In this document: in pieces, positions 10,013 to 49,067 of the stretch
How positions within the stretch are numbered: the first letter of the stretch is position 1
How the letters are laid out: every line of letters begins with the position of its first letter
Origin: a virus
Direction: 5' to 3' (one strand)
IMG/VR virus record: IMGVR_UViG_3300034072_002231
Location: 1-54,588 of that record
Length of the DNA: 54,588 nt
Translations under genes and position numbers: made by a program
The notes under the pieces: model-generated
Database searches by the model: none
Told to the model about the DNA's origin: nothing
What the model saw: only the letters and a program-made list of their open reading frames with translations

Positions 10013-10732
10013 TTATTTTTCGTGCCGATTAATAAATCCCGCTTCTTTAGAAGTTACTTTACCAGAAGCATATCCCTTAATTAGAGCAATTGTAAGCAAT
10101 ATTGAAATTAGTAAAGAGAAGATGATTGAATAGTCGGGTGCACAGTCTTTACATATATGATTTTGCAAAAATTCTGCAATTAGTCCAATCCACACTAAAA
10201 TTATTGCAATAGACATTAACTCATTAAGTTTAGATACTGAATAAATTGGAGTTTTCAGGCTATATACTGTCTTATACAAGGGACCGGTTATAAAGTCTTC
10301 TAAAGTGTCTATGTGCATTTCCCAATTTTCTTGCCACCTCTTACTTCCTTTAATATTTAACCACCATGTAATTGAGAATAAAAGCCCAAGTAATAACAAG
10401 TACAGATCTATATTTTTTGGCATTTTAATGCATGGGTCGGCAGTAATGACTGATATATATCCCCCAAATGTCAAAACTATAAATCCCCAAAAATATGTTG
10501 CCCGGGTCCAAAATTTATCTATTTCAAAGTTTCTTGTTTCCCATGCCTTTTCGTAAGCCAATTGTAGTTTATTTCTATGTTTCTTCTTGACAAAATATTT
10601 TTCTTTTTTTTCATCGTACTTAATTCCAAATCGCTCATAATATTGATTAGTATCTAATACTTTATAAGTATCCATTTTTCTCCAAAAATATTTATGGAAA
10701 ACTTCCTTGAAATACTCTTTTATTTTTTTCAT
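10013..10732 (-). CDS. RipA-like four-helix membrane protein
   Basis: 239 aa with four predicted membrane helices (about 76-96, 109-126, 171-190, 201-219) and a charged cytosolic N-terminus. 'GSKRWQENWEMHIDTLEDFITG' between helices 2 and 3 matches what I recall of the RipA family of octameric inner-membrane proteins (up to 20 residues of it quoted as the core GSKRWQENWE). It is AT-rich, monocistronic and convergent with the nuclease gene. Possibly an accessory protein of the neighbouring module or an independent moron. Confidence 0.65.
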   Translation of the reverse strand: MKKIKEYFKEVFHKYFWRKMDTYKVLDTNQYYERFGIKYDEKKEKYFVKKKHRNKLQLAYEKAWETRNFEIDKFWTRATYFWGFIVLTFGGYISVITADPCIKMPKNIDLYLLLLGLLFSITWWLNIKGSKRWQENWEMHIDTLEDFITGPLYKTVYSLKTPIYSVSKLNELMSIAIILVWIGLIAEFLQNHICKDCAPDYSIIFSLLISILLTIALIKGYASGKVTSKEAGFINRHEK

Positions 10733-10831: not shown

Positions 10832-10839
10832 TAAGTTTG
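10832..10839 (+). promoter_or_regulatory. -7 box of cassette A
   Basis: TAAGTTTG fits TAnnTTTG. It ends 4 bp before the first TGCGAAA box, the same offset as in cassette B, so transcription should start inside or at that box. Confidence 0.65.
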
Positions 10840-10842
10840 TAG

Positions 10843-11001
10843 TGCGAAATACCAATTTTACTTCTATGTTTTTTAAATTCTCACTAATAATATCCCACAG
10901 CAAGGAAGGGGTTTGGAGCCCTATCCCTCGAGTAAAATCTGGTGTTTCGCAGTCCTTGTTTGTGGGTCTTTTAAATTCACTAAGATTATGCGAAACACCA
11001 G
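10843..11001 (+). ncRNA. structured leader RNA of cassette A (three-strand pseudoknot switch candidate)
   Basis: Segment M (10939-10951, CTGGTGTTTCGCA) is perfectly complementary over 13 nt to 10989-11001, which holds the start codon of the first gene. Its 3' 12 nt also pair with 10843-10854 at the predicted 5' end of the RNA, with one G-U pair. The two pairings exclude each other. A further 12-bp helix, CCCACA-g-CAAGGA (10894-10906) with TCCTTG-tt-TGTGGG (10953-10966), interleaves with either pairing, giving a pseudoknot. A small hairpin AGGG/CCCT follows its 5' strand. The same architecture occurs at 42793-42950. No known RNA family was recognised. Confidence 0.65.
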
Positions 11002-11266
11002 TGAAAACAAAGTTACATCCGTTCAGGATGTGTTGCCGGCAATAGCAGCCTTATTGCAGCGGCACGACAAAGAAACATTTACAAATGCCCCGGCAGTAAT
11101 CAGGCAAATGTTTGACGACATTCTTGATACAGATTCCGGAGACAACATGCAGTACCGGCAGGAAATTCTCATTACCCTGCGCGCCATTACAGATTTAGGC
11201 ACAACACTGCAGCCCTTTCCACAGGAAATTATCTGGCAACTGCAAAACCCTCCCGCAAATGGATAG
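10988..11266 (+). CDS. cassette A gene 1 (92-aa protein, paralogue of 42938 gene)
   Basis: 92 aa. The start at 10988 is chosen because the homologue at 42938 has exactly the same length and begins with the same MRNT, and because the ATG lies inside the leader's complementary box. Shared features are 'QDV(L/I)PA' near 13-18, 'MF(D/N)D' mid-protein, 'QYR' and 'DLG(T/N)TL' near 69-74; predicted all-helical. No signal peptide. It overlaps gene 2 by 8 bp. Function unknown; I see no toxin, nuclease or HTH signature. Confidence 0.75.
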   Translation: MRNTSENKVTSVQDVLPAIAALLQRHDKETFTNAPAVIRQMFDDILDTDSGDNMQYRQEILITLRAITDLGTTLQPFPQEIIWQLQNPPANG

Positions 11267-11660
11267 CGTGGGCACAATTATCGTAATGTACCCCAATGGT
11301 ACAGCGGTAAGATATGAAAACAGCACCATAAGGTTTGCGGCCGCCCAGCTCATAGCAATGAATATGCCCGGAAACGAAGCTCCGCTCTACCTGCAGCGCG
11401 AAGGGTCAGAAAACAAAATATACTACCTGGAGAGTGCACTAAAGCGCTACATAAAAGGCGAAAGCAGCTATCAGGACACTATGGTAGCCCTGCTGTGCAA
11501 TGGCCTGTACCGCAACAAGGCCGACATTACCGTTAATGGCCACGAAATAGATGCCGGCAGCCTGTGGTTCCGCCACAACAATAAGCTCGTGCTGTGCAGC
11601 GCAGATGAGTATGCCTCCCTGCACCTGACCGGTAATGAAGATAAATTTACAGAGTTGTAA
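11259..11660 (+). CDS. cassette A gene 2 (133-aa protein, paralogue of 43227 gene)
   Basis: 133 aa soluble protein. It shares with the 43227 product the N-terminal beta strand plus 'AVRYENSTI', a central 'YY..(A)LKRYIKG..SY', 'CNGLYRN(K/N)A' near residue 87, and 'SLWFRHNNKLVL' towards the C-terminus. Translation is coupled to gene 1 through the 8-bp overlap, so the leader RNA probably governs both. Family unknown. Base composition is like the phage core and not like the AT-rich cargo. Confidence 0.75.
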   Translation: MDSVGTIIVMYPNGTAVRYENSTIRFAAAQLIAMNMPGNEAPLYLQREGSENKIYYLESALKRYIKGESSYQDTMVALLCNGLYRNKADITVNGHEIDAGSLWFRHNNKLVLCSADEYASLHLTGNEDKFTEL

Positions 11661-31331: not shown

Positions 31332-32267
31332 CTAAGCTGCGGTCAGCTGACCATAGCTAAGTATGCAGTCCTTAATATTTGAAATCAGTAGCATAAACCT
31401 ATCCCTTGGGGTCAGCTTTCGTGTGTTGTGCCTGAATACGAACTCATCGACATACTTTTGCAGATGCTTCCTTGAGATAACCCTATACACGCCTATGATG
31501 CCACGCTTGAGGTTACCCCAAAAGTTTTCTATCGAATTGGTGTGGGCATTACCGTCAACGTACTGCCTCTTGCCGTGGTTCACAATTTCATGGTTGTACA
31601 ATTTGCTCAACTCATTGTATGCCTTCCATTCATCTGAGTAAACCGCTGTCGTTCCGATATAATCGACACCTCTCATTATTATGGGCTCCAATTCCTCTGT
31701 GGTGGTCGCTGCGACAACACGGGCGATAACCTTGCCCTTGCGTTCAATCATGCCAAACACAGGAACCTTATCTACTGCGCTACGACCCTGCGAGTACTTG
31801 AATTTCTTGTTCGAATGACGGTTCTTGTTTTTGCCGCCAATATAAGTTTCATCGACTTCAATTTCGTTCGACAATACATGGTTGTTTTCGAATTGACTGC
31901 ACGTCCTGAGGCGTTGCAGTATGAACCAAGCCGTCTTCTGCGTGATACCAAGCTCTCTCTCTAATTGCATGGAGGACACGCCACCCTTGTGGCTTGAGTA
32001 CAGCCATATAGCTATGAACCAGTCCTGTAACTTGATGTTTGAGTTCTTGAAGATGCCGACGCTCCTCACGTTGAAGTACTTCCCAGTGTTGCGGCACTTG
32101 TACCTGTTATCCTTGCACTTGTAAACTTTGGAGGTCTCGTCAAATGGAGAGACTGGGTTCCCGTCCCATATTACTGCCTCAAGAAAATTAATGCATGTTT
32201 GTTCATCTGGGAATACATTTATCAGTTCCCTGATGGATTTAAATTTGAAATTGTCTATGATGTTCAT
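31332..32267 (-). CDS. IS1595-family (ISXO2-like) transposase
   Basis: 311 aa, full length. A zinc-ribbon-like N-terminus ('YKCKDNRYKCRNTGKYF'), an HTH ('MQLERELGITQKTAWFILQRL'), then the ISXO2-type catalytic core: Asp139 in 'DETYIGGK', Asp212 in 'SDEWKAY', and 'HTNSIENFWGNLKRG' near 242-256. The frame is intact, so the element may still move. On the minus strand the ATG is preceded at once by a hairpin (32268-32286) containing the likely ribosome-binding AGAAGG. Confidence 0.9.
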   Translation of the reverse strand: MNIIDNFKFKSIRELINVFPDEQTCINFLEAVIWDGNPVSPFDETSKVYKCKDNRYKCRNTGKYFNVRSVGIFKNSNIKLQDWFIAIWLYSSHKGGVSSMQLERELGITQKTAWFILQRLRTCSQFENNHVLSNEIEVDETYIGGKNKNRHSNKKFKYSQGRSAVDKVPVFGMIERKGKVIARVVAATTTEELEPIIMRGVDYIGTTAVYSDEWKAYNELSKLYNHEIVNHGKRQYVDGNAHTNSIENFWGNLKRGIIGVYRVISRKHLQKYVDEFVFRHNTRKLTPRDRFMLLISNIKDCILSYGQLTAA

Positions 32268-40328: not shown

Positions 40329-40517
40329 ATGGCAAAAGTATCAGAACTTTTGAGACTATTGAAGAAAGATGGGTGGTACCTGTACAAAAACGGAGCTAAT
40401 CACGATTTATACAGGCATCCCTCGAAAAAAAATCAATTAACAGTACCGCGACATGGTAGCAAAGAGATGGCTACCGGTACATATAACAGTATACTTAAGG
40501 CAGCAGGATTAAAATAA
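40329..40517 (+). CDS. hicA: HicA-family mRNA interferase toxin
   Basis: 62 aa. The double-stranded RNA-binding-like HicA fold is indicated by 'LLRLLKKDGWYLYKNGANHDLYRHP' (first 20: LLRLLKKDGWYLYKNGANHD), the catalytic His in 'GANHDLYRHP', 'LTVPRHGSKEMATGTYNSIL' and the ending 'KAAGLK'. It cleaves mRNA independently of ribosomes. Toxin-first order, 29 bp from hicB. Confidence 0.88.
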   Translation: MAKVSELLRLLKKDGWYLYKNGANHDLYRHPSKKNQLTVPRHGSKEMATGTYNSILKAAGLK

Positions 40518-40546
40518 ACCTCTGTTTTTTTACTCACAGTATAACT

Positions 40547-40957
40547 ATGAATAAACCTTTTAATGTAACCGTTATAGTAGAAAAAACCGGGACGGGGTTT
40601 TCTGCTTACGCCAAGGAGATAGACGGTCTGGTAACGGTGGGCGATTCTATTTCCGAATTGAAGTCGAACTTTAATGAAGTACTTTATCATCACGTAGAGT
40701 ATCTACAGGAGCAAGGCGAAACTTCTTTAAAAGTCGACGACTTTGAGCTTAATTACGTTTTAGATCTCGAACAATTTTTCGAGTACTTCAATGTAATAAA
40801 CAAAACTGCCTTTGCAGAGCAATATGCAAAGGTTAACAGCAGCCTTTTCAGGCAATATACAAAAGGCTTAGCCCCACTTTCGGGAGATAAGCTAAAACAA
40901 ATATCAAAAGGGCTACATAAGCTGGCAGATGAAATTAACGATTTAAGCTTTGCATAA
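40547..40957 (+). CDS. hicB: HicB-family antitoxin
   Basis: 136 aa. N-terminal HicB fold ('VTVIVEKTGTGFSAYAKEIDG', core GTGFSAYAKEIDGLVTVGDS) is a partially degraded RNase H-like domain that covers HicA. The C-terminus (about 85-130, 'FRQYTKGLAPLSGDKLKQIS') resembles an HTH/XRE domain for autorepression. Typical length for the DNA-binding type. Confidence 0.85.
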   Translation: MNKPFNVTVIVEKTGTGFSAYAKEIDGLVTVGDSISELKSNFNEVLYHHVEYLQEQGETSLKVDDFELNYVLDLEQFFEYFNVINKTAFAEQYAKVNSSLFRQYTKGLAPLSGDKLKQISKGLHKLADEINDLSFA

Positions 40958-40968
40958 AATTTTGTAGA

Positions 40969-41757
40969 ATGAATGTATTTATAAGTTGGTCAGGCGAAAG
41001 AAGTAAAAGAGTTGCTGAATTACTGGATGAATGGCTTAAATGTGTTATTCAGGCAATAGATCCGTGGATGTCAAGTAAGGATATTGACAGAGGTGCACTG
41101 TGGTTTACAGAAATTTCAGGGCAATTAGCAAATACCTCTATTGGTATTGTGTGCCTGACTAAAGAAAATAAAAACAAGCCCTGGATATTATTTGAATCAG
41201 GTGCACTTGCTAAAGGAATATCATCAAATAGAGTTTTGACATTATTAATTGATTTGGCACCTTCGGATCTTGAAAGTCCGTTATCACAGTTCAATCACTC
41301 ATTCCCTGATAAAGATGGTATATATAAGCTTGTAAGTACAATTAATGCCTATTTGGGTGATAAGGCATTAAATAAATCAATTTTAGAAAAAGTTTTTGAA
41401 ACATACTGGTCTCAATTTGAGGAGAATTTTAATCAGATATTAAAAGATGTACCTGAAGGAGAAATTGAAGATAAAAGATCATCTAATGACTTGCTCAATG
41501 AAGTACTAATGTCTGTAAGAGCAATGGATAGTAGATTAAGAAACTTAGAAACAAAAAATCGTCCAATCAAAAAAGCAACAATAGAAAAGGTTTCTGACGA
41601 AAATTCAAAGGAACCAAGAAACATTACCATTTGGGAGAATATAGGAAATAAAGATTTACTGGAATATCTTCGTAATGCAACAACTCCTGCAACTGAATTT
41701 TCAGATAAATATATAGATATGCAAAAATTCATTAGAGATAACTTTAAGCCAGAATAA
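40969..41757 (+). CDS. TIR-domain protein with coiled-coil tail
   Basis: 262 aa. TIR/SEFIR-like N-terminus: 'NVFISWSGERSKRVAELL' (first strand and helix), and the catalytic-type Glu76 in 'PWILFESGALAKG', as in NAD-degrading TIR effectors. A helical region follows (about 170-200), and a C-terminal tail. It is AT-rich and starts 11 bp after hicB. TIR effectors deplete NAD+ upon phage sensing; no second sensor gene is adjacent, so it may be stand-alone or supported by the downstream membrane gene. Confidence 0.8.
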   Translation: MNVFISWSGERSKRVAELLDEWLKCVIQAIDPWMSSKDIDRGALWFTEISGQLANTSIGIVCLTKENKNKPWILFESGALAKGISSNRVLTLLIDLAPSDLESPLSQFNHSFPDKDGIYKLVSTINAYLGDKALNKSILEKVFETYWSQFEENFNQILKDVPEGEIEDKRSSNDLLNEVLMSVRAMDSRLRNLETKNRPIKKATIEKVSDENSKEPRNITIWENIGNKDLLEYLRNATTPATEFSDKYIDMQKFIRDNFKPE

Positions 41758-41762
41758 ACCAA

Positions 41763-41790
41763 CTCCCCGCCCGGTGCGGGGATTTTTATT
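41763..41790 (+). terminator. terminator after the TIR gene
   Basis: TCCCCGC/GCGGGGA stem, 5-nt loop, ATTTTTATTT tail. Confidence 0.85.
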
Positions 41791-41798
41791 TACTAAAA

Positions 41799-41828
41799 TT
41801 TAACATTTAACTTTTTTTCATAAATTGG
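41799..41828 (+). promoter_or_regulatory. promoter, TTTAACATTTA class
   Basis: TTTAACATTTA (41799-41809) and TAAATTGG (41821-41828), same spacing (22 bp) and same position after a terminator as at 539-568. Confidence 0.5.
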
Positions 41829-41855
41829 CAACTGATAATCAGTCAATCCAACTAT

Positions 41856-42683
41856 ATGAAAACCCTTCTCCCCCTGCTCCTGCTATTTTTTAACCTGATG
41901 CTGTTTGCACAAGAACCTAAAGACGTTTATTACCTAAACAAAATACAAAAGCTTGAAAAAGCTGTAGATTCTCTCAAATCAGAAAGGGAACTATACAAAG
42001 CTCATTATCAAGCCAGTTCTCATAACACAGTGACTAATGAAGTTAAAGATTTTTATCAAGACTCATTTGATAATTTATTGTGGTTATTAGGCGGGTTAAT
42101 TACAGTATTTGGTATCATAATTCCCTTCTTGAATCAATATTTCCAAAGAAAAAGTTTGAATGATCTTACCGGAAGAATATCTAATCAACTTACTGAGGCT
42201 TTTGAGCAAAGGCTTGAAGTCCTTAACCAAAACAGCAAGACTCAAATTGAAAGAATAAATAGTGCTTTTCAAAGTGAAATTGAAAGAATCAACAGTATAA
42301 TGAATGAAAAATTTATAGAATTTGATAAACTCAGTGAAGACTTTAAGTTTCAGATTAAAGGTATGATGTTTTATAGTCAAGGTAGTGCTAATGTAGCTGT
42401 ACTAAATACATATTTGGGTATCTTTAATTTTTTGTTTGCTGCTGAAGTATATTTAGACTTGCATGATACTGATAATTATGAACTATGTATTGCAAATATT
42501 TTTAATTTAGTAGATAGTATAGATAAGGAAACAATTAGTAATTTAGAATCACACTTGCAAGCTTATGATTATACAATTGATAAATTCATGCATAAATTTA
42601 TTAATAATTACACTTCAAATATAAATCTTCAATATTTAGAAGTAATACATCAAAAATTCAATGAATTTAAATATCCAATATAA
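41856..42683 (+). CDS. membrane-anchored coiled-coil protein (accessory cargo)
   Basis: 275 aa. Signal peptide or first hydrophobic segment (1-18, ending 'LMLFAQ'), a coiled coil (about 28-50), a membrane helix at about 74-93, a longer coiled coil (about 100-165), and a helical C-terminal domain. AT-rich, own promoter and terminator. Its plan resembles the 588-1484 gene. Role unknown; the position after a TIR effector makes a defence link possible. Confidence 0.7.
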   Translation: MKTLLPLLLLFFNLMLFAQEPKDVYYLNKIQKLEKAVDSLKSERELYKAHYQASSHNTVTNEVKDFYQDSFDNLLWLLGGLITVFGIIIPFLNQYFQRKSLNDLTGRISNQLTEAFEQRLEVLNQNSKTQIERINSAFQSEIERINSIMNEKFIEFDKLSEDFKFQIKGMMFYSQGSANVAVLNTYLGIFNFLFAAEVYLDLHDTDNYELCIANIFNLVDSIDKETISNLESHLQAYDYTIDKFMHKFINNYTSNINLQYLEVIHQKFNEFKYPI

Positions 42684-42781: not shown

Positions 42782-42789
42782 TATATTTG
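42782..42789 (+). promoter_or_regulatory. -7 box of cassette B
   Basis: TATATTTG fits TAnnTTTG and ends 4 bp before the first TGCGAAA box, as in cassette A. Confidence 0.65.
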
Positions 42790-42792
42790 TAA

Positions 42793-42950
42793 TGCGAAAC
42801 ATAGTTGCCTGAAACTCTAAATCAGGGTAAATACTTTAATTAATAATATGGCGGAGTCCGGTAGCAGTAATGCCCGGAAAGTACTTCACTTAGGTGACTG
42901 TGTTTCGCAGCTCCGCCTCCATTAATTTATTCTTGTTATGCGAAACACAG
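42793..42950 (+). ncRNA. structured leader RNA of cassette B (three-strand pseudoknot switch candidate)
   Basis: Segment M (42898-42909, CTGTGTTTCGCA) is perfectly complementary over 12 nt to 42939-42950, holding the start codon, and pairs with 42793-42804 at the predicted 5' end with one G-U pair. A second helix GGCGGAG (42850-42856) with CTCCGCC (42911-42917) interleaves as in cassette A. Additional hairpins: CCTGA/TCAGG (42808-42826) and TCCGG/CCGGA (42857-42878). The distance between the 5' box and the start-codon box is 146 nt in both cassettes. Confidence 0.65.
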
Positions 42951-43216
42951 AAGTAAATGCAAAAGAAAACACATCTCCACAAGATGTAATTCCCGCCTTA
43001 GTGGCATTTTTAAACCGGTATGATATTACCGAAATTGCCACTACCTGCCCTGCCACAGTGCAGGAAATGTTTAACGACCTTATGTGCACAGAAGCTGCCG
43101 ATAGCGCCCAGTACCGCGAGCGCATGCGCTTTTCTCTGCTCATAATTGCCGACCTGGGCAATACCCTGCTGCCTTTTACAGATATAGATGCATCTGCCAT
43201 AAAACTGCCCGCATAG
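42938..43216 (+). CDS. cassette B gene 1 (92-aa protein, paralogue of 10988 gene)
   Basis: 92 aa, identical in length to its cassette A homologue and beginning MRNT because the leader box encodes these codons. Shared blocks: 'PQDVIPALVAFLNRYD' (A: 'VQDVLPAIAALLQRHD'), 'EMFNDLM', 'QYRERMRFSL' and 'DLGNTLLPF'. All-helical, soluble. Ten bp from gene 2. Function unknown. Confidence 0.75.
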   Translation: MRNTEVNAKENTSPQDVIPALVAFLNRYDITEIATTCPATVQEMFNDLMCTEAADSAQYRERMRFSLLIIADLGNTLLPFTDIDASAIKLPA

Positions 43217-43226
43217 CCCCTGCCCT

Positions 43227-43643
43227 ATGGATGCAAAGGCTACCGTTTCCGTACTGTTCCCCAAGAGCAGCGCGGTGCCCTACCACGAAGTTACAGTACT
43301 GGAAGTGGCAAAAACAATTATAGACATGAAGCTAACGCCCAAAACAGAGCCGCTGCTGCTAACTGTACAGGGGCAAAAAGAGCAGCTATACTACAACAGG
43401 TATATGTTTTGGCTGTATGCAAAGGGTAAAATAAGCTATGCCGACTTGCTGGCCTCGTGCTGGTGCCACGGGCTGTACCGCAACAATGCAGAGCTTGTTG
43501 GCCCCGCCGCCGAAACAGTAGATGCGCACAGCCTCTGGATGCTGCGCCACAACACACTTTTGCTTGTAGATGATAACAGGCACGTTACCCAAAGCTCGGC
43601 CACTATTGATGCGTTATTTTATAATGTAGAAAAAGTTCCGTAG
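43227..43643 (+). CDS. cassette B gene 2 (138-aa protein, paralogue of 11259 gene)
   Basis: 138 aa. It shares with the cassette A protein 'CHGLYRNNA', 'LYAKGKISYADL' and 'SLWMLRHNTLLLVD'. The C-terminus beyond residue 120 is not conserved. It likely acts with gene 1 since both copies keep the order. Family unknown. Confidence 0.75.
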   Translation: MDAKATVSVLFPKSSAVPYHEVTVLEVAKTIIDMKLTPKTEPLLLTVQGQKEQLYYNRYMFWLYAKGKISYADLLASCWCHGLYRNNAELVGPAAETVDAHSLWMLRHNTLLLVDDNRHVTQSSATIDALFYNVEKVP

Positions 43644-47700: not shown

Positions 47701-49067
47701 AGCAGGACAAACTGGAGAAGCTGCAACAGGCTTATGAGGATGAAACAAAGCTAAGGCAGACCAAACATAACTACGAGCTTGCCGCACTTGGTGATAATGA
47801 AGCCAAAAAAGCAAAGCTTCAGCAGCAGTTTGACAAGTCGGAACTGGAAAGACAACAAAAGCACCTCGAAAAGTTATTACAGGCACAATTAGATGTACTT
47901 GCAGATAAGAATAAAAAAATTGACCTTACCCTTCTTGATAAAGAACAAAGGCAGAAAATAGAACAGGATATAGCCGACCTGAAGCTGAAGATATCGGAAA
48001 TCGTAAAAGCAAAGGCAGAACTCTCCGGCAAGGGCGGTACCGATGATATGGCCAATGCATTTGCCAAAGCCTTTGGCGATGCGGATGTACTTGGCTTTAC
48101 AGCCCAGCAGTGGGGGCAAACCTTTAGTAGCCTTGATACGTTGTCGGAAAAGCTGGAGGCAACAAAGTTGGTAATCGGTGCCATGCAAAATGTGTGGGGT
48201 ACATTCAACGACTTTGTAGCTGTAAATGAAAATGCCCGTCTTTCGAGTTTTGAGCGAAATGCAGAACGCAAGAAGCGTAAACTGAAATGGCAGCTTGACA
48301 ATGGCTATTTAGACCAGGTACAGTATAACCGTGAGGTAGAGCGGATGGATGCTGAGCTTGATGTTAAGCGATCTGAAATTGAGTACAGGCAGGCCAAGCG
48401 GCAAAAGCAGATTTCAGCCATGAATATTATATGGAACACTGCCCAGGCCATTATGGGTATCTGGGCACAATTCCCAAAAGCTGACTTTGGTGCTACAGCA
48501 GCAATTATGGCAGGGGTTGTGGGTGCCCTGGGTGCAGTGCAGCTCGCCACTGTACTTAAAACCCCGCTGCCGGCAAAAGGATATGAACAAGGCCTTTACC
48601 CTGATTATGTAAAGCGTGAGCAGGATGGTAAATTATTCCGTGCCGGTTATGGCGGCAAAACACGCTCAGGCATGGTGAACAAGCCTACCTATTTCCTTAC
48701 GGGCGAGAATGGCCCTGAGATGGTAATTGACAACAGGGCATACCGTTCCCTCTCAGCCGAAACCCGTAATGCATTGCTCAGGGAGCTGAGGGGCATCAAA
48801 GGATGGGAGAATGGCTATTACTCTGACCAGGTTAAAGGGCAGCGCTTTGAAGTGCCTGCCTCTTTCACCAATACTGCCCCAATAAGTAATAATCAGGATG
48901 CGGACAGAGCATTGCTTATTGAAGTGGTGCGGCGCAACACAGAAGTAATGGAGAAGATCTACACAGACGGAATCATAAGCTATTTTTCCCGTGATCCGCG
49001 CGACCTTAAAAAGCTAATGGAAGATATGGAAAGGATTACCCGCAGTAAAGAAAAAGCCAAATACTGA
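44724..49067 (+). CDS. tail tape measure protein
   Basis: 1447 aa, the longest gene. N-terminal coiled coil ('NKELLAEKKKLERQGKQETAE', core KELLAEKKKLERQ), hydrophobic segments near 165-185, 515-530 and 595-615, long Glu/Lys coiled coils (860-1120), and a Gly-rich C-terminal part ('YFLTGENGPEMVIDNRAYRSL') common to tape measures. It sets tail length and ejects with DNA. First gene of the tail unit. Confidence 0.9.
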   Translation: MAKKRISDEEIKLSIVINGNEAQKELYELEKNTREVTAANKELLAEKKKLERQGKQETAEYKKLTAEIKANNAVLRQNKSRMGELQNEIGLTGLTLAQLRTKANQLKLTLRNLIPGSADYNRYQAELKQVSARLDELNGKAKTAAWSVGNIADRFNRFAALGATVIAAGTGVVLTLQKMIDYNGKLADAQSNVMKTTGLTRKEVDELTKSFSQLRTRTSRIELLGIAEVGGRLGIAKEEIANFVKVMDKSAVALGDSFEGGPEVVAEKLGRIKGLYDELKNSNVESAFESVGSAMNDLGAAGTASEQNVAEFTTRVGALPAVLKPTIQEALGLGAAFEESGLKAEIAGTNYGKVISIAARDIGNFATVMRRPRKELEDLINNDPTEFFLQFASSLKGLDATELAQVLDYLKLNDNEVKMVLGAASQNVDMFREKIDLASESMAEATSLTDEYNIKNNNLAATLERIQKKVFGWFSSETVVQWLEDFVNGFAKLIGAVEDSEGTMNTLRNTLVFTAKILAIVAASFISYAAGAKLSTIWSNTLGKATAFSNLVFKIQYALLIANEIKTKALALAKALLTGNITRARAAYQALAVTMGLNPFGVLLGIIGAVIAAFALFRKEVDETSKILQQQAEIQKQVQEQTGRTKNRVADLVATLKDENATYDQKQRALEQLQKLGRGYLDTLTLENALTAEGDRLVKEYIKSIDKLAEAKAMVDVRSKLMAQKTESENKILALRNEKGATANEGLSDFFGGSDGKLFGIGSRNQKEIQSEIDEENERKRLIELQLNTINKNRTEELEKLSLRIKSGRQQLEKLKKNSDEYKKLLRDILNDEETFNILSGITDAADSALSVTGGDLFIPDPDAAQKVKQAAELHKKRMEDIKKQLEDIKGLSRKAIDERLELMEEGLDKEEALEAENHKRRIEDLKAQLTSEADIQAAEKKMLNQKLSVQERDYWSRQVQVWVSKNVHLNGLLQLEQARHQYKLATIRTKGEQDKLEKLQQAYEDETKLRQTKHNYELAALGDNEAKKAKLQQQFDKSELERQQKHLEKLLQAQLDVLADKNKKIDLTLLDKEQRQKIEQDIADLKLKISEIVKAKAELSGKGGTDDMANAFAKAFGDADVLGFTAQQWGQTFSSLDTLSEKLEATKLVIGAMQNVWGTFNDFVAVNENARLSSFERNAERKKRKLKWQLDNGYLDQVQYNREVERMDAELDVKRSEIEYRQAKRQKQISAMNIIWNTAQAIMGIWAQFPKADFGATAAIMAGVVGALGAVQLATVLKTPLPAKGYEQGLYPDYVKREQDGKLFRAGYGGKTRSGMVNKPTYFLTGENGPEMVIDNRAYRSLSAETRNALLRELRGIKGWENGYYSDQVKGQRFEVPASFTNTAPISNNQDADRALLIEVVRRNTEVMEKIYTDGIISYFSRDPRDLKKLMEDMERITRSKEKAKY

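What the first reader, a model, noticed from the sequence alone, without database searches (positions are those of the whole stretch)
42782..42950. Second copy with the same topology and compensatory sequence changes (cassette B)
Cassette B repeats every element: -7 box 4 bp before TGCGAAACA, middle strand 42898-42909 complementary to 42939-42950 (12 nt, start codon inside) and to 42793-42804 (12 nt, one G-U), and an interleaved helix GGCGGAG/CTCCGCC in place of the A helix. Sequences differ (CCAG against ACAG ends; completely different second helix), yet pairing is kept. In both copies the 5' strand pairs slightly less stably than the start-codon strand, and both boxes are 146 nt apart. This argues for selection on structure.
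Basis: seen in the sequence. Interest (0 to 1): 0.9.

Follow-up and report, generated by a model that had tools for sequence, protein, structure and literature searches.

The report
C4-type antisense leader in Bacteroidota phage
Each of two small operons in this temperate phage begins with an RNA segment that can pair with the operon's own start codon and also with a copy of that sequence at the very start of the transcript; it looks like a relative of the C4 antisense RNA by which phage P1 keeps its lytic genes off, and it belongs to a large, mostly unannotated group of such RNAs in Bacteroidota phages and chromosomes.

Summary
Box plus 5' strand / antisense / start-codon strand occurs only twice in the window (cassettes A and B; shuffles average 0.017). 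In B the 5' strand pairs with the middle strand over 20 bp (4 G-U), not 12. Pattern scans gave 31 further distinct leaders of the same plan, a few of them weak. Beyond the 8-nt core, both alternative helices and the interleaved helix covary strongly (swap tests p<=5e-5). The best identification is a C4-type antisense RNA: Rfam c4-2 matches B over its full length below cut-off (27 of 41 bits); curated c4-2 RNAs in Bacteroidota genomes show the same copy/antisense/copy order, two with homologues of the 92-aa protein; phage P1 has the same order (a1b1, C4, a2b2, icd, ant). Genes behind the leaders include Bro-N, KilA-N, Rha and AntA antirepressor-type proteins and SymE toxins. Differences from known C4: one fused antisense block on the start codon itself, a target copy at the transcription start rich in U-G pairs, and two copies in one phage with different specificity segments. 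Release of a trans-acting RNA is inferred, not shown.

The parts
42782..42789 (+). Cassette B: Bacteroidota-type -7 box TATATTTG, 3 bp before the 5' strand
   Evidence: sequence; box present upstream of the relatives, also in the set whose search did not ask for it
42793..42812 (+). Cassette B: 5' strand (target copy 1, comparable to a1b1 of phage P1), expected at the transcript's 5' end
   Evidence: 20-bp pairing with 42890-42909, four G-U; covariation
42850..42857 (+). Cassette B: closing stem S2, 5' strand (GGCGGAGT)
   Evidence: pairs with 42910-42917; swap test over relatives
42858..42877 (+). Cassette B: hairpin P2 (CCGGTAGCAGTAATGCCCGG), matches the c4-2 hairpin
   Evidence: Rfam alignment; fold
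42846..42923 (+). Cassette B: stretch matched by Rfam c4-2 (RF02944), 27.0 bits, below the gathering score of 41
42890..42909 (+). Cassette B: antisense strand (variable extension, then core GTTTCGCA)
   Evidence: pairs with 5' copy or with start-codon copy
42910..42917 (+). Cassette B: closing stem S2, 3' strand (GCTCCGCC)
42939..42950 (+). Cassette B: start-codon strand (target copy 2), starts at the second base of the ATG
   Evidence: 12 perfect pairs with 42898-42909
42938..43216 (+). Gene 1 of cassette B, 92 aa (MRNTEVN...), icd-like position
   Evidence: ORF; 43% identical to gene 1 of cassette A; homologues behind curated c4-2 RNAs
43227..43643 (+). Gene 2 of cassette B, 138 aa, function unknown
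   Evidence: ORF; 31% identical to gene 2 of cassette A; phrog_38077 E 2.6e-6
10832..10839 (+). Cassette A: -7 box TAAGTTTG
10843..10863 (+). Cassette A: 5' strand (target copy 1)
   Evidence: 21 bp with one bulge against the antisense region
10895..10907 (+). Cassette A: closing stem S2, 5' strand (CCCACAGCAAGGA)
10939..10951 (+). Cassette A: antisense strand core and extension (CTGGTGTTTCGCA)
   Evidence: 13 pairs with the start-codon strand
10953..10966 (+). Cassette A: closing stem S2, 3' strand (TCCTTGTTTGTGGG)
10988..11266 (+). Gene 1 of cassette A, 92 aa; start codon and next bases are target copy 2
11259..11660 (+). Gene 2 of cassette A, 133 aa, overlaps the end of gene 1
   Evidence: phrog_38077 E 6.7e-12

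Best explanation
Cassette B (like A) is a C4-type antisense module of a temperate Bacteroidota phage. A promoter starts transcription at a first copy of the target sequence. The transcript then carries a C4-like RNA: closing stem S2, hairpin P2, and an antisense strand directly before the stem's 3' strand. The second target copy covers the start codon of a two-gene operon. C4-like RNA pairs with AUGCGAAACnnnn and blocks translation of gene 1 and, by coupling or premature termination, gene 2; in a lysogen it would also silence the same operon of a related incoming phage. The conserved core covers the start codon and the variable extension gives specificity, so A and B carry different specificity segments. 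In the primary transcript the 5' copy pairs with the antisense strand and keeps it from the start codon. Shown: anatomy, covariation of the three helices, relatedness to c4-2, gene context in relatives. Inferred: release of the RNA, trans action, translational block, immunity, and the role of the 5' copy.
For: Only A and B have the box-plus-triple in the window. 33 distinct leaders: extension pairing 6.0 nt cognate against 0.87 swapped (5'/antisense), 4.2 against 0.88 (antisense/start), S2 score 20.8 against 10.9, all p<=5e-5; covariation scores 0.462 and 0.309 against slid controls of at most 0.130 and 0.107. Rfam c4-2 full-length match in B, E 7e-4, and in L028 22.4 bits. Curated c4-2 RNAs in Bacteroidota genomes have the same copy/antisense/copy order with covarying copies; two of them, L279 and L282, are fused on the start codon and encode gene 1 homologues. 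P1 record: a1b1, C4, a2b2, icd, ant1 in the same order. Antirepressor-type genes (Bro-N, KilA-N, Rha, AntA) and SymE behind other leaders. The phage has an integrase and a helix-turn-helix repressor-like protein.
Against: B scores below the Rfam cut-off and A has no c4 match; most relatives give none either. One fused antisense block instead of separate a' and b' loops. Genes 1 and 2 match no antirepressor family. No expression data. Start-codon discrimination between A and B is modest (cross pairs -17.1 and -17.6 against -22.2 and -19.3 kcal/mol).
Confidence: 0.8

Rival explanations
1. A purely cis-acting translational switch: one mRNA toggles between 5'strand/antisense (start codon open) and antisense/start codon (closed), set by a ligand, protein or folding kinetics, with no released RNA.
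For: Two mutually exclusive helices of similar energy on the same transcript; minimum-energy folds of the leaders choose the 5' helix in B and the start-codon helix in A.
Against: Relatedness and identical order to c4-2 and C4, where the RNA is released and acts in trans in P1/P7; cassette-specific extensions, which a cis switch does not need.
Confidence: 0.15
2. A DNA-level element: inverted and direct repeats used for promoter inversion, recombination or protein binding.
For: Inverted and direct repeats with a promoter-like box are present.
Against: The extension is kept complementary through 37 U-G pairs in the 5' helix, which DNA pairing does not preserve; S2 has unrelated sequences in each leader but is always complementary; the strands are fixed relative to promoter and start codon.
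Confidence: 0.02
3. Chance, or similarity only because A and B are paralogous copies.
For: Genes 1 and 2 of A and B are homologous.
Against: Shuffles and swap and slide controls on 28-33 distinct leaders upstream of unrelated genes.
Confidence: 0.01

Closest known systems
c4-2 RNA (Rfam RF02944, clan CL00128)
   Same: Closing stem, hairpin (GGUAGC...GCCC in B), antisense before the 3' stem; box, copy 1, RNA, copy 2, ATG in the same order; two over-cut-off members encode gene 1 homologues.
   Different: Typical c4-2 has a variable loop plus conserved UAGGA aimed just upstream of the ATG; here one contiguous block covers the ATG and following codons. B 27 bits, A none, cut-off 41.
C4 antisense RNA of phages P1/P7 (RF01695), immI operon c4-icd-ant
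   Same: Promoter, target copy a1b1, C4, target copy a2b2, small first cistron, overlapping second gene (overlap in A only); antirepressor-type genes in relatives.
   Different: P1 has two separate short antisense segments and targets upstream of icd; a1 lies about 30 nt after the -10 box rather than at the transcription start. No sequence-level match to RF01695.
SymE/SymR type I toxin-antitoxin
   Same: An antisense RNA blocks translation of SymE (general knowledge); here SymE-family genes stand behind the same leader in several genomes.
   Different: SymR is made from the opposite strand (general knowledge); here the antisense lies upstream on the same strand and transcript. Cassettes A and B do not encode SymE.

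Membership tests
c4-2 RNA (RF02944) | Covariance-model score at or above the gathering score (41 bits) | tested here: not met
   B 27.0 bits, E 7e-4, full length; A no match
c4-2 RNA (RF02944) | Hairpin GGUAGC...GCCC inside a long closing stem | tested here: inconclusive
   Present in B, absent in A, which has another hairpin there
c4-2 RNA (RF02944) | Variable antisense loop followed by conserved UAGGA, aimed upstream of the ATG | tested here: not met
   A and B have one contiguous antisense strand over the ATG; over-cut-off members L279 and L282 do too
c4-2 RNA (RF02944) | Target copies on both sides of the RNA, covarying with the antisense (feature seen here, not part of the Rfam model) | tested here: met
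   for this group; for curated c4-2 loci
C4 antisense RNA (RF01695) | Rfam RF01695 match | tested here: not met
   No RF01695 match in either leader
C4 antisense RNA (RF01695) | Order promoter / copy 1 / RNA / copy 2 / first cistron / second gene | tested here: met
C4 antisense RNA (RF01695) | Antisense segment(s) between P2 and the 3' strand of the closing stem | tested here: met
   in P1 two segments, here one
C4 antisense RNA (RF01695) | Controls an antirepressor operon | tested here: inconclusive
   Bro-N, KilA-N, Rha and AntA proteins in relatives; genes 1 and 2 of A and B match none
C4 antisense RNA (RF01695) | Cut out by RNase P at the 5' side of the closing stem | not testable with these tools
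   needs RNA ends or an in vitro assay
C4 antisense RNA (RF01695) | Acts in trans to give immunity | not testable with these tools
   needs a genetic test

The most novel reading that the evidence does not exclude
The target copy at the transcription start makes the module a bistable memory. In a naive cell the nascent 5' copy captures the cis-encoded antisense and the operon is expressed. In a lysogen, C4-like RNA already present binds the 5' copy first, so each new antisense segment is freed, matures and keeps the operon silent. The U-G bias of the 5' helix would tune this exchange.
Probability: 0.25. Interest if true: 0.82.

Novelty: new variant of a known kind. Interest (0 to 1): 0.58.

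Why it matters
C4 antisense immunity is known in detail from P1/P7 and was predicted mainly in proteobacteria. These data show a wide Bacteroidota branch that Rfam does not call at its cut-offs, aimed at start codons in a phylum that makes little use of Shine-Dalgarno pairing (general knowledge), attached to several kinds of antirepressor-type genes and to SymE toxins, and present twice in one phage with different specificity segments. The conserved target copy at the transcription start raises a directly testable question: what the a1b1 copy, known only as a putative site in P1, is for.

Tried and rejected
Protein searches with genes 1 and 2 against phages, viral contigs and genomes found no relatives; DNA patterns of the RNA strands did. 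Rfam at gathering thresholds found nothing in the window, and twelve related loci gave no c4 match even in E-value mode, though L028 did when its leader was given alone. The 146-nt spacing and a second promoter box before the ATG were considered as functional and dropped, since relatives do not keep them. Structure of gene 2: confident model (pLDDT 88) but no significant match in PDB or viral models. Gene 1: low-confidence helical model. DNA inversion was considered and rejected because of the G-U pattern.

Full report
WHAT WAS CHECKED. The stated strands are at the stated places. The box is 3, not 4, bases before TGCGAAACA. A scan of both strands for a TAnnTTTG-type box, X (7 nt) 2-5 nt later, its reverse complement 60-130 nt on and X again finds only cassettes A (10832) and B (42782); 60 dinucleotide shuffles average 0.017 hits. 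The 5' helix is longer than reported: 20 bp with four G-U in B (-30.2 kcal/mol) and 21 bp with one bulge in A (-25.4), against -19.6 and -22.9 for antisense/start codon. The claim that the 5' strand pairs more weakly therefore fails once the whole helix is counted; in 30 leaders the 5' helix is the stronger one in 21.

RELATIVES. Proteins 1 and 2 found no relatives by tblastn or peptide patterns. A pattern holding only the antisense and start cores, scanned over viral contigs, returned many loci that also have TAnnTTTGnnnTGCGAAAC about 90-110 nt upstream, although this was not asked for. Patterns with the 5' and antisense cores over GTDB genomes and viral contigs added more. After filtering, 33 non-redundant leaders including A and B remain; a few (L193, L246, L175) are weak and may be chance. 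The genome loci whose titles were shown and that passed the filter are nearly all from Bacteroidota (Fulvivirga, Flavobacterium, Tenacibaculum, Muricauda and others).

COVARIATION. The 8-nt core was part of the search and says nothing. In the extension beyond it, cognate 5'/antisense pairing runs 6.0 nt against 0.87 for partners swapped between leaders, antisense/start 4.2 against 0.88, and the S2 helix score is 20.8 against 10.9; none of 20,000 permutations reached any of these. On an ungapped 28-row alignment the covariation score is 0.462 (5'/antisense; slid controls at most 0.130) and 0.309 (antisense/start; at most 0.107). In the extension the 5' strand pairs U-G 37 times and C-G 31 times, the start strand 2 and 36 times (Fisher p = 1.7e-7; the cells are not fully independent, and the start strand is also coding). 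Pairing kept through wobble is an RNA signature.

IDENTIFICATION. cmscan of the cassette B leader alone gives c4-2 (RF02944, in the clan of the C4 antisense RNA) over its full length, 42846-42923, 27.0 bits, E 7e-4, below the gathering score of 41. The near relative L028, which has B's RNA before a different gene, gives 22.4 bits. Cassette A gives no c4 match. Among sampled Bacteroidota genomes, 7 of 296 have c4-2 RNAs over the cut-off, usually several each. Read by eye, these have box, copy 1 (TCCTAA plus a variable segment) about 3-4 nt later, the RNA, copy 2 and ATG, and both copies covary with the variable antisense loop (7.4 against about 4.7 nt, p = 2e-4). Two over-cut-off members, L279 and L282, have instead a fused antisense on the start codon with other cores (TGACTAAA, TGCAAAAC) and encode homologues of the 92-aa protein (blastp 1e-6 to 1e-10 in a 25-protein set). 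These bridge curated c4-2 and the window cassettes.

PHAGE P1. The record annotates promoter P1c4, putative a1 and b1 sites, C4 RNA 48343-48419, a2 and b2 sites, icd and overlapping ant1. In the sequence, b' and a' lie between the P2 hairpin and the closing stem's 3' strand, as the antisense does here. In P1/P7, C4 is cut out by RNase P, b' covers the ribosome-binding site and a' gives specificity (PMC5320573); trans-acting c4 RNA represses Ant synthesis (PMC8546580). The order of parts in A and B is the same; in A gene 2 starts within the end of gene 1, as ant1 does in icd; in B a 10-nt gap separates them.

GENE CONTEXT. Directly behind, or one or two genes behind, other leaders are Bro-N proteins (L019, L200), KilA-N with KilAC (L027), KilA-N (L208, third gene), Rha (L029), AntA (L042) and SymE toxins (L151, L156). 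L208's second gene is a relative of gene 2 (24% identical to gene 2 of A). The window is a temperate phage with an integrase and a helix-turn-helix repressor-like protein.

MECHANISM. Shown: anatomy, covariation of three helices, relatedness to c4-2, operon order. Inferred from the P1 precedent: processing, trans action, translational block, immunity. The A antisense with the B start copy gives -17.1 and the reverse -17.6 kcal/mol, against -22.2 and -19.3 for the cognate pairs, so discrimination at the start codon is modest for B, and complete separation of A and B is not certain. The role of the 5' copy is open: it may sequester the antisense in the primary transcript, act as a decoy, or be a first target that gives the system a memory.

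LIMITS. Selection on TGCGAAAC means that relatives with other cores were missed, as L279 and L282 show. S2 was picked as the best helix, which is why only the swap test is quoted. Duplex energies ignore pseudoknot geometry. The original paper on c4-2 is not in the library, so what it says of the 5' copy was not checked; that Rfam's model (79 positions) does not reach the 5' copy is from the cmscan alignment.

Noticed in passing
L151, L156 (first gene after the leader); L168 and L184 similar by eye: SymE-family toxin genes (Pfam SymE_toxin, E about 1e-10) in Bacteroidota chromosomes stand directly behind the same kind of leader, so an antisense antitoxin may be encoded upstream on the toxin's own transcript.
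   Followed up: partly
L249-L277 and L281, about 20 nt after each c4-2 RNA: Curated c4-2 RNAs in Bacteroidota genomes stand before a multi-copy, mostly monocistronic 77-aa protein (MSTNTLSKETE...FYWLNELAEILNPYL) with no NCBIfam match.
   Followed up: partly
Leaders of L006, L017, L046, L098, L150, L151, L156, L176: The P2 hairpin loop reads TGNAAGT, which resembles a T-loop; it might bear on RNase P recognition.
   Followed up: no
40329-42683: Cargo next to cassette B: a HicA/HicB-like pair, a TIR-domain protein matching PADLOC TIR-TM (1e-63) and a membrane protein; a possible defence island in the phage.
   Followed up: no
10013-10732 (-): Membrane protein of the Pfam 8xMP family next to cassette A (E 2.5e-33).
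   Followed up: no
31332-32267 (-): IS1595-type transposase in the phage genome (E 2e-44).
   Followed up: no
L017, L046, L225 and cassette B: In several phages the leader cassette sits a short way upstream of a tape-measure-like gene, perhaps a shared insertion position.
   Followed up: no
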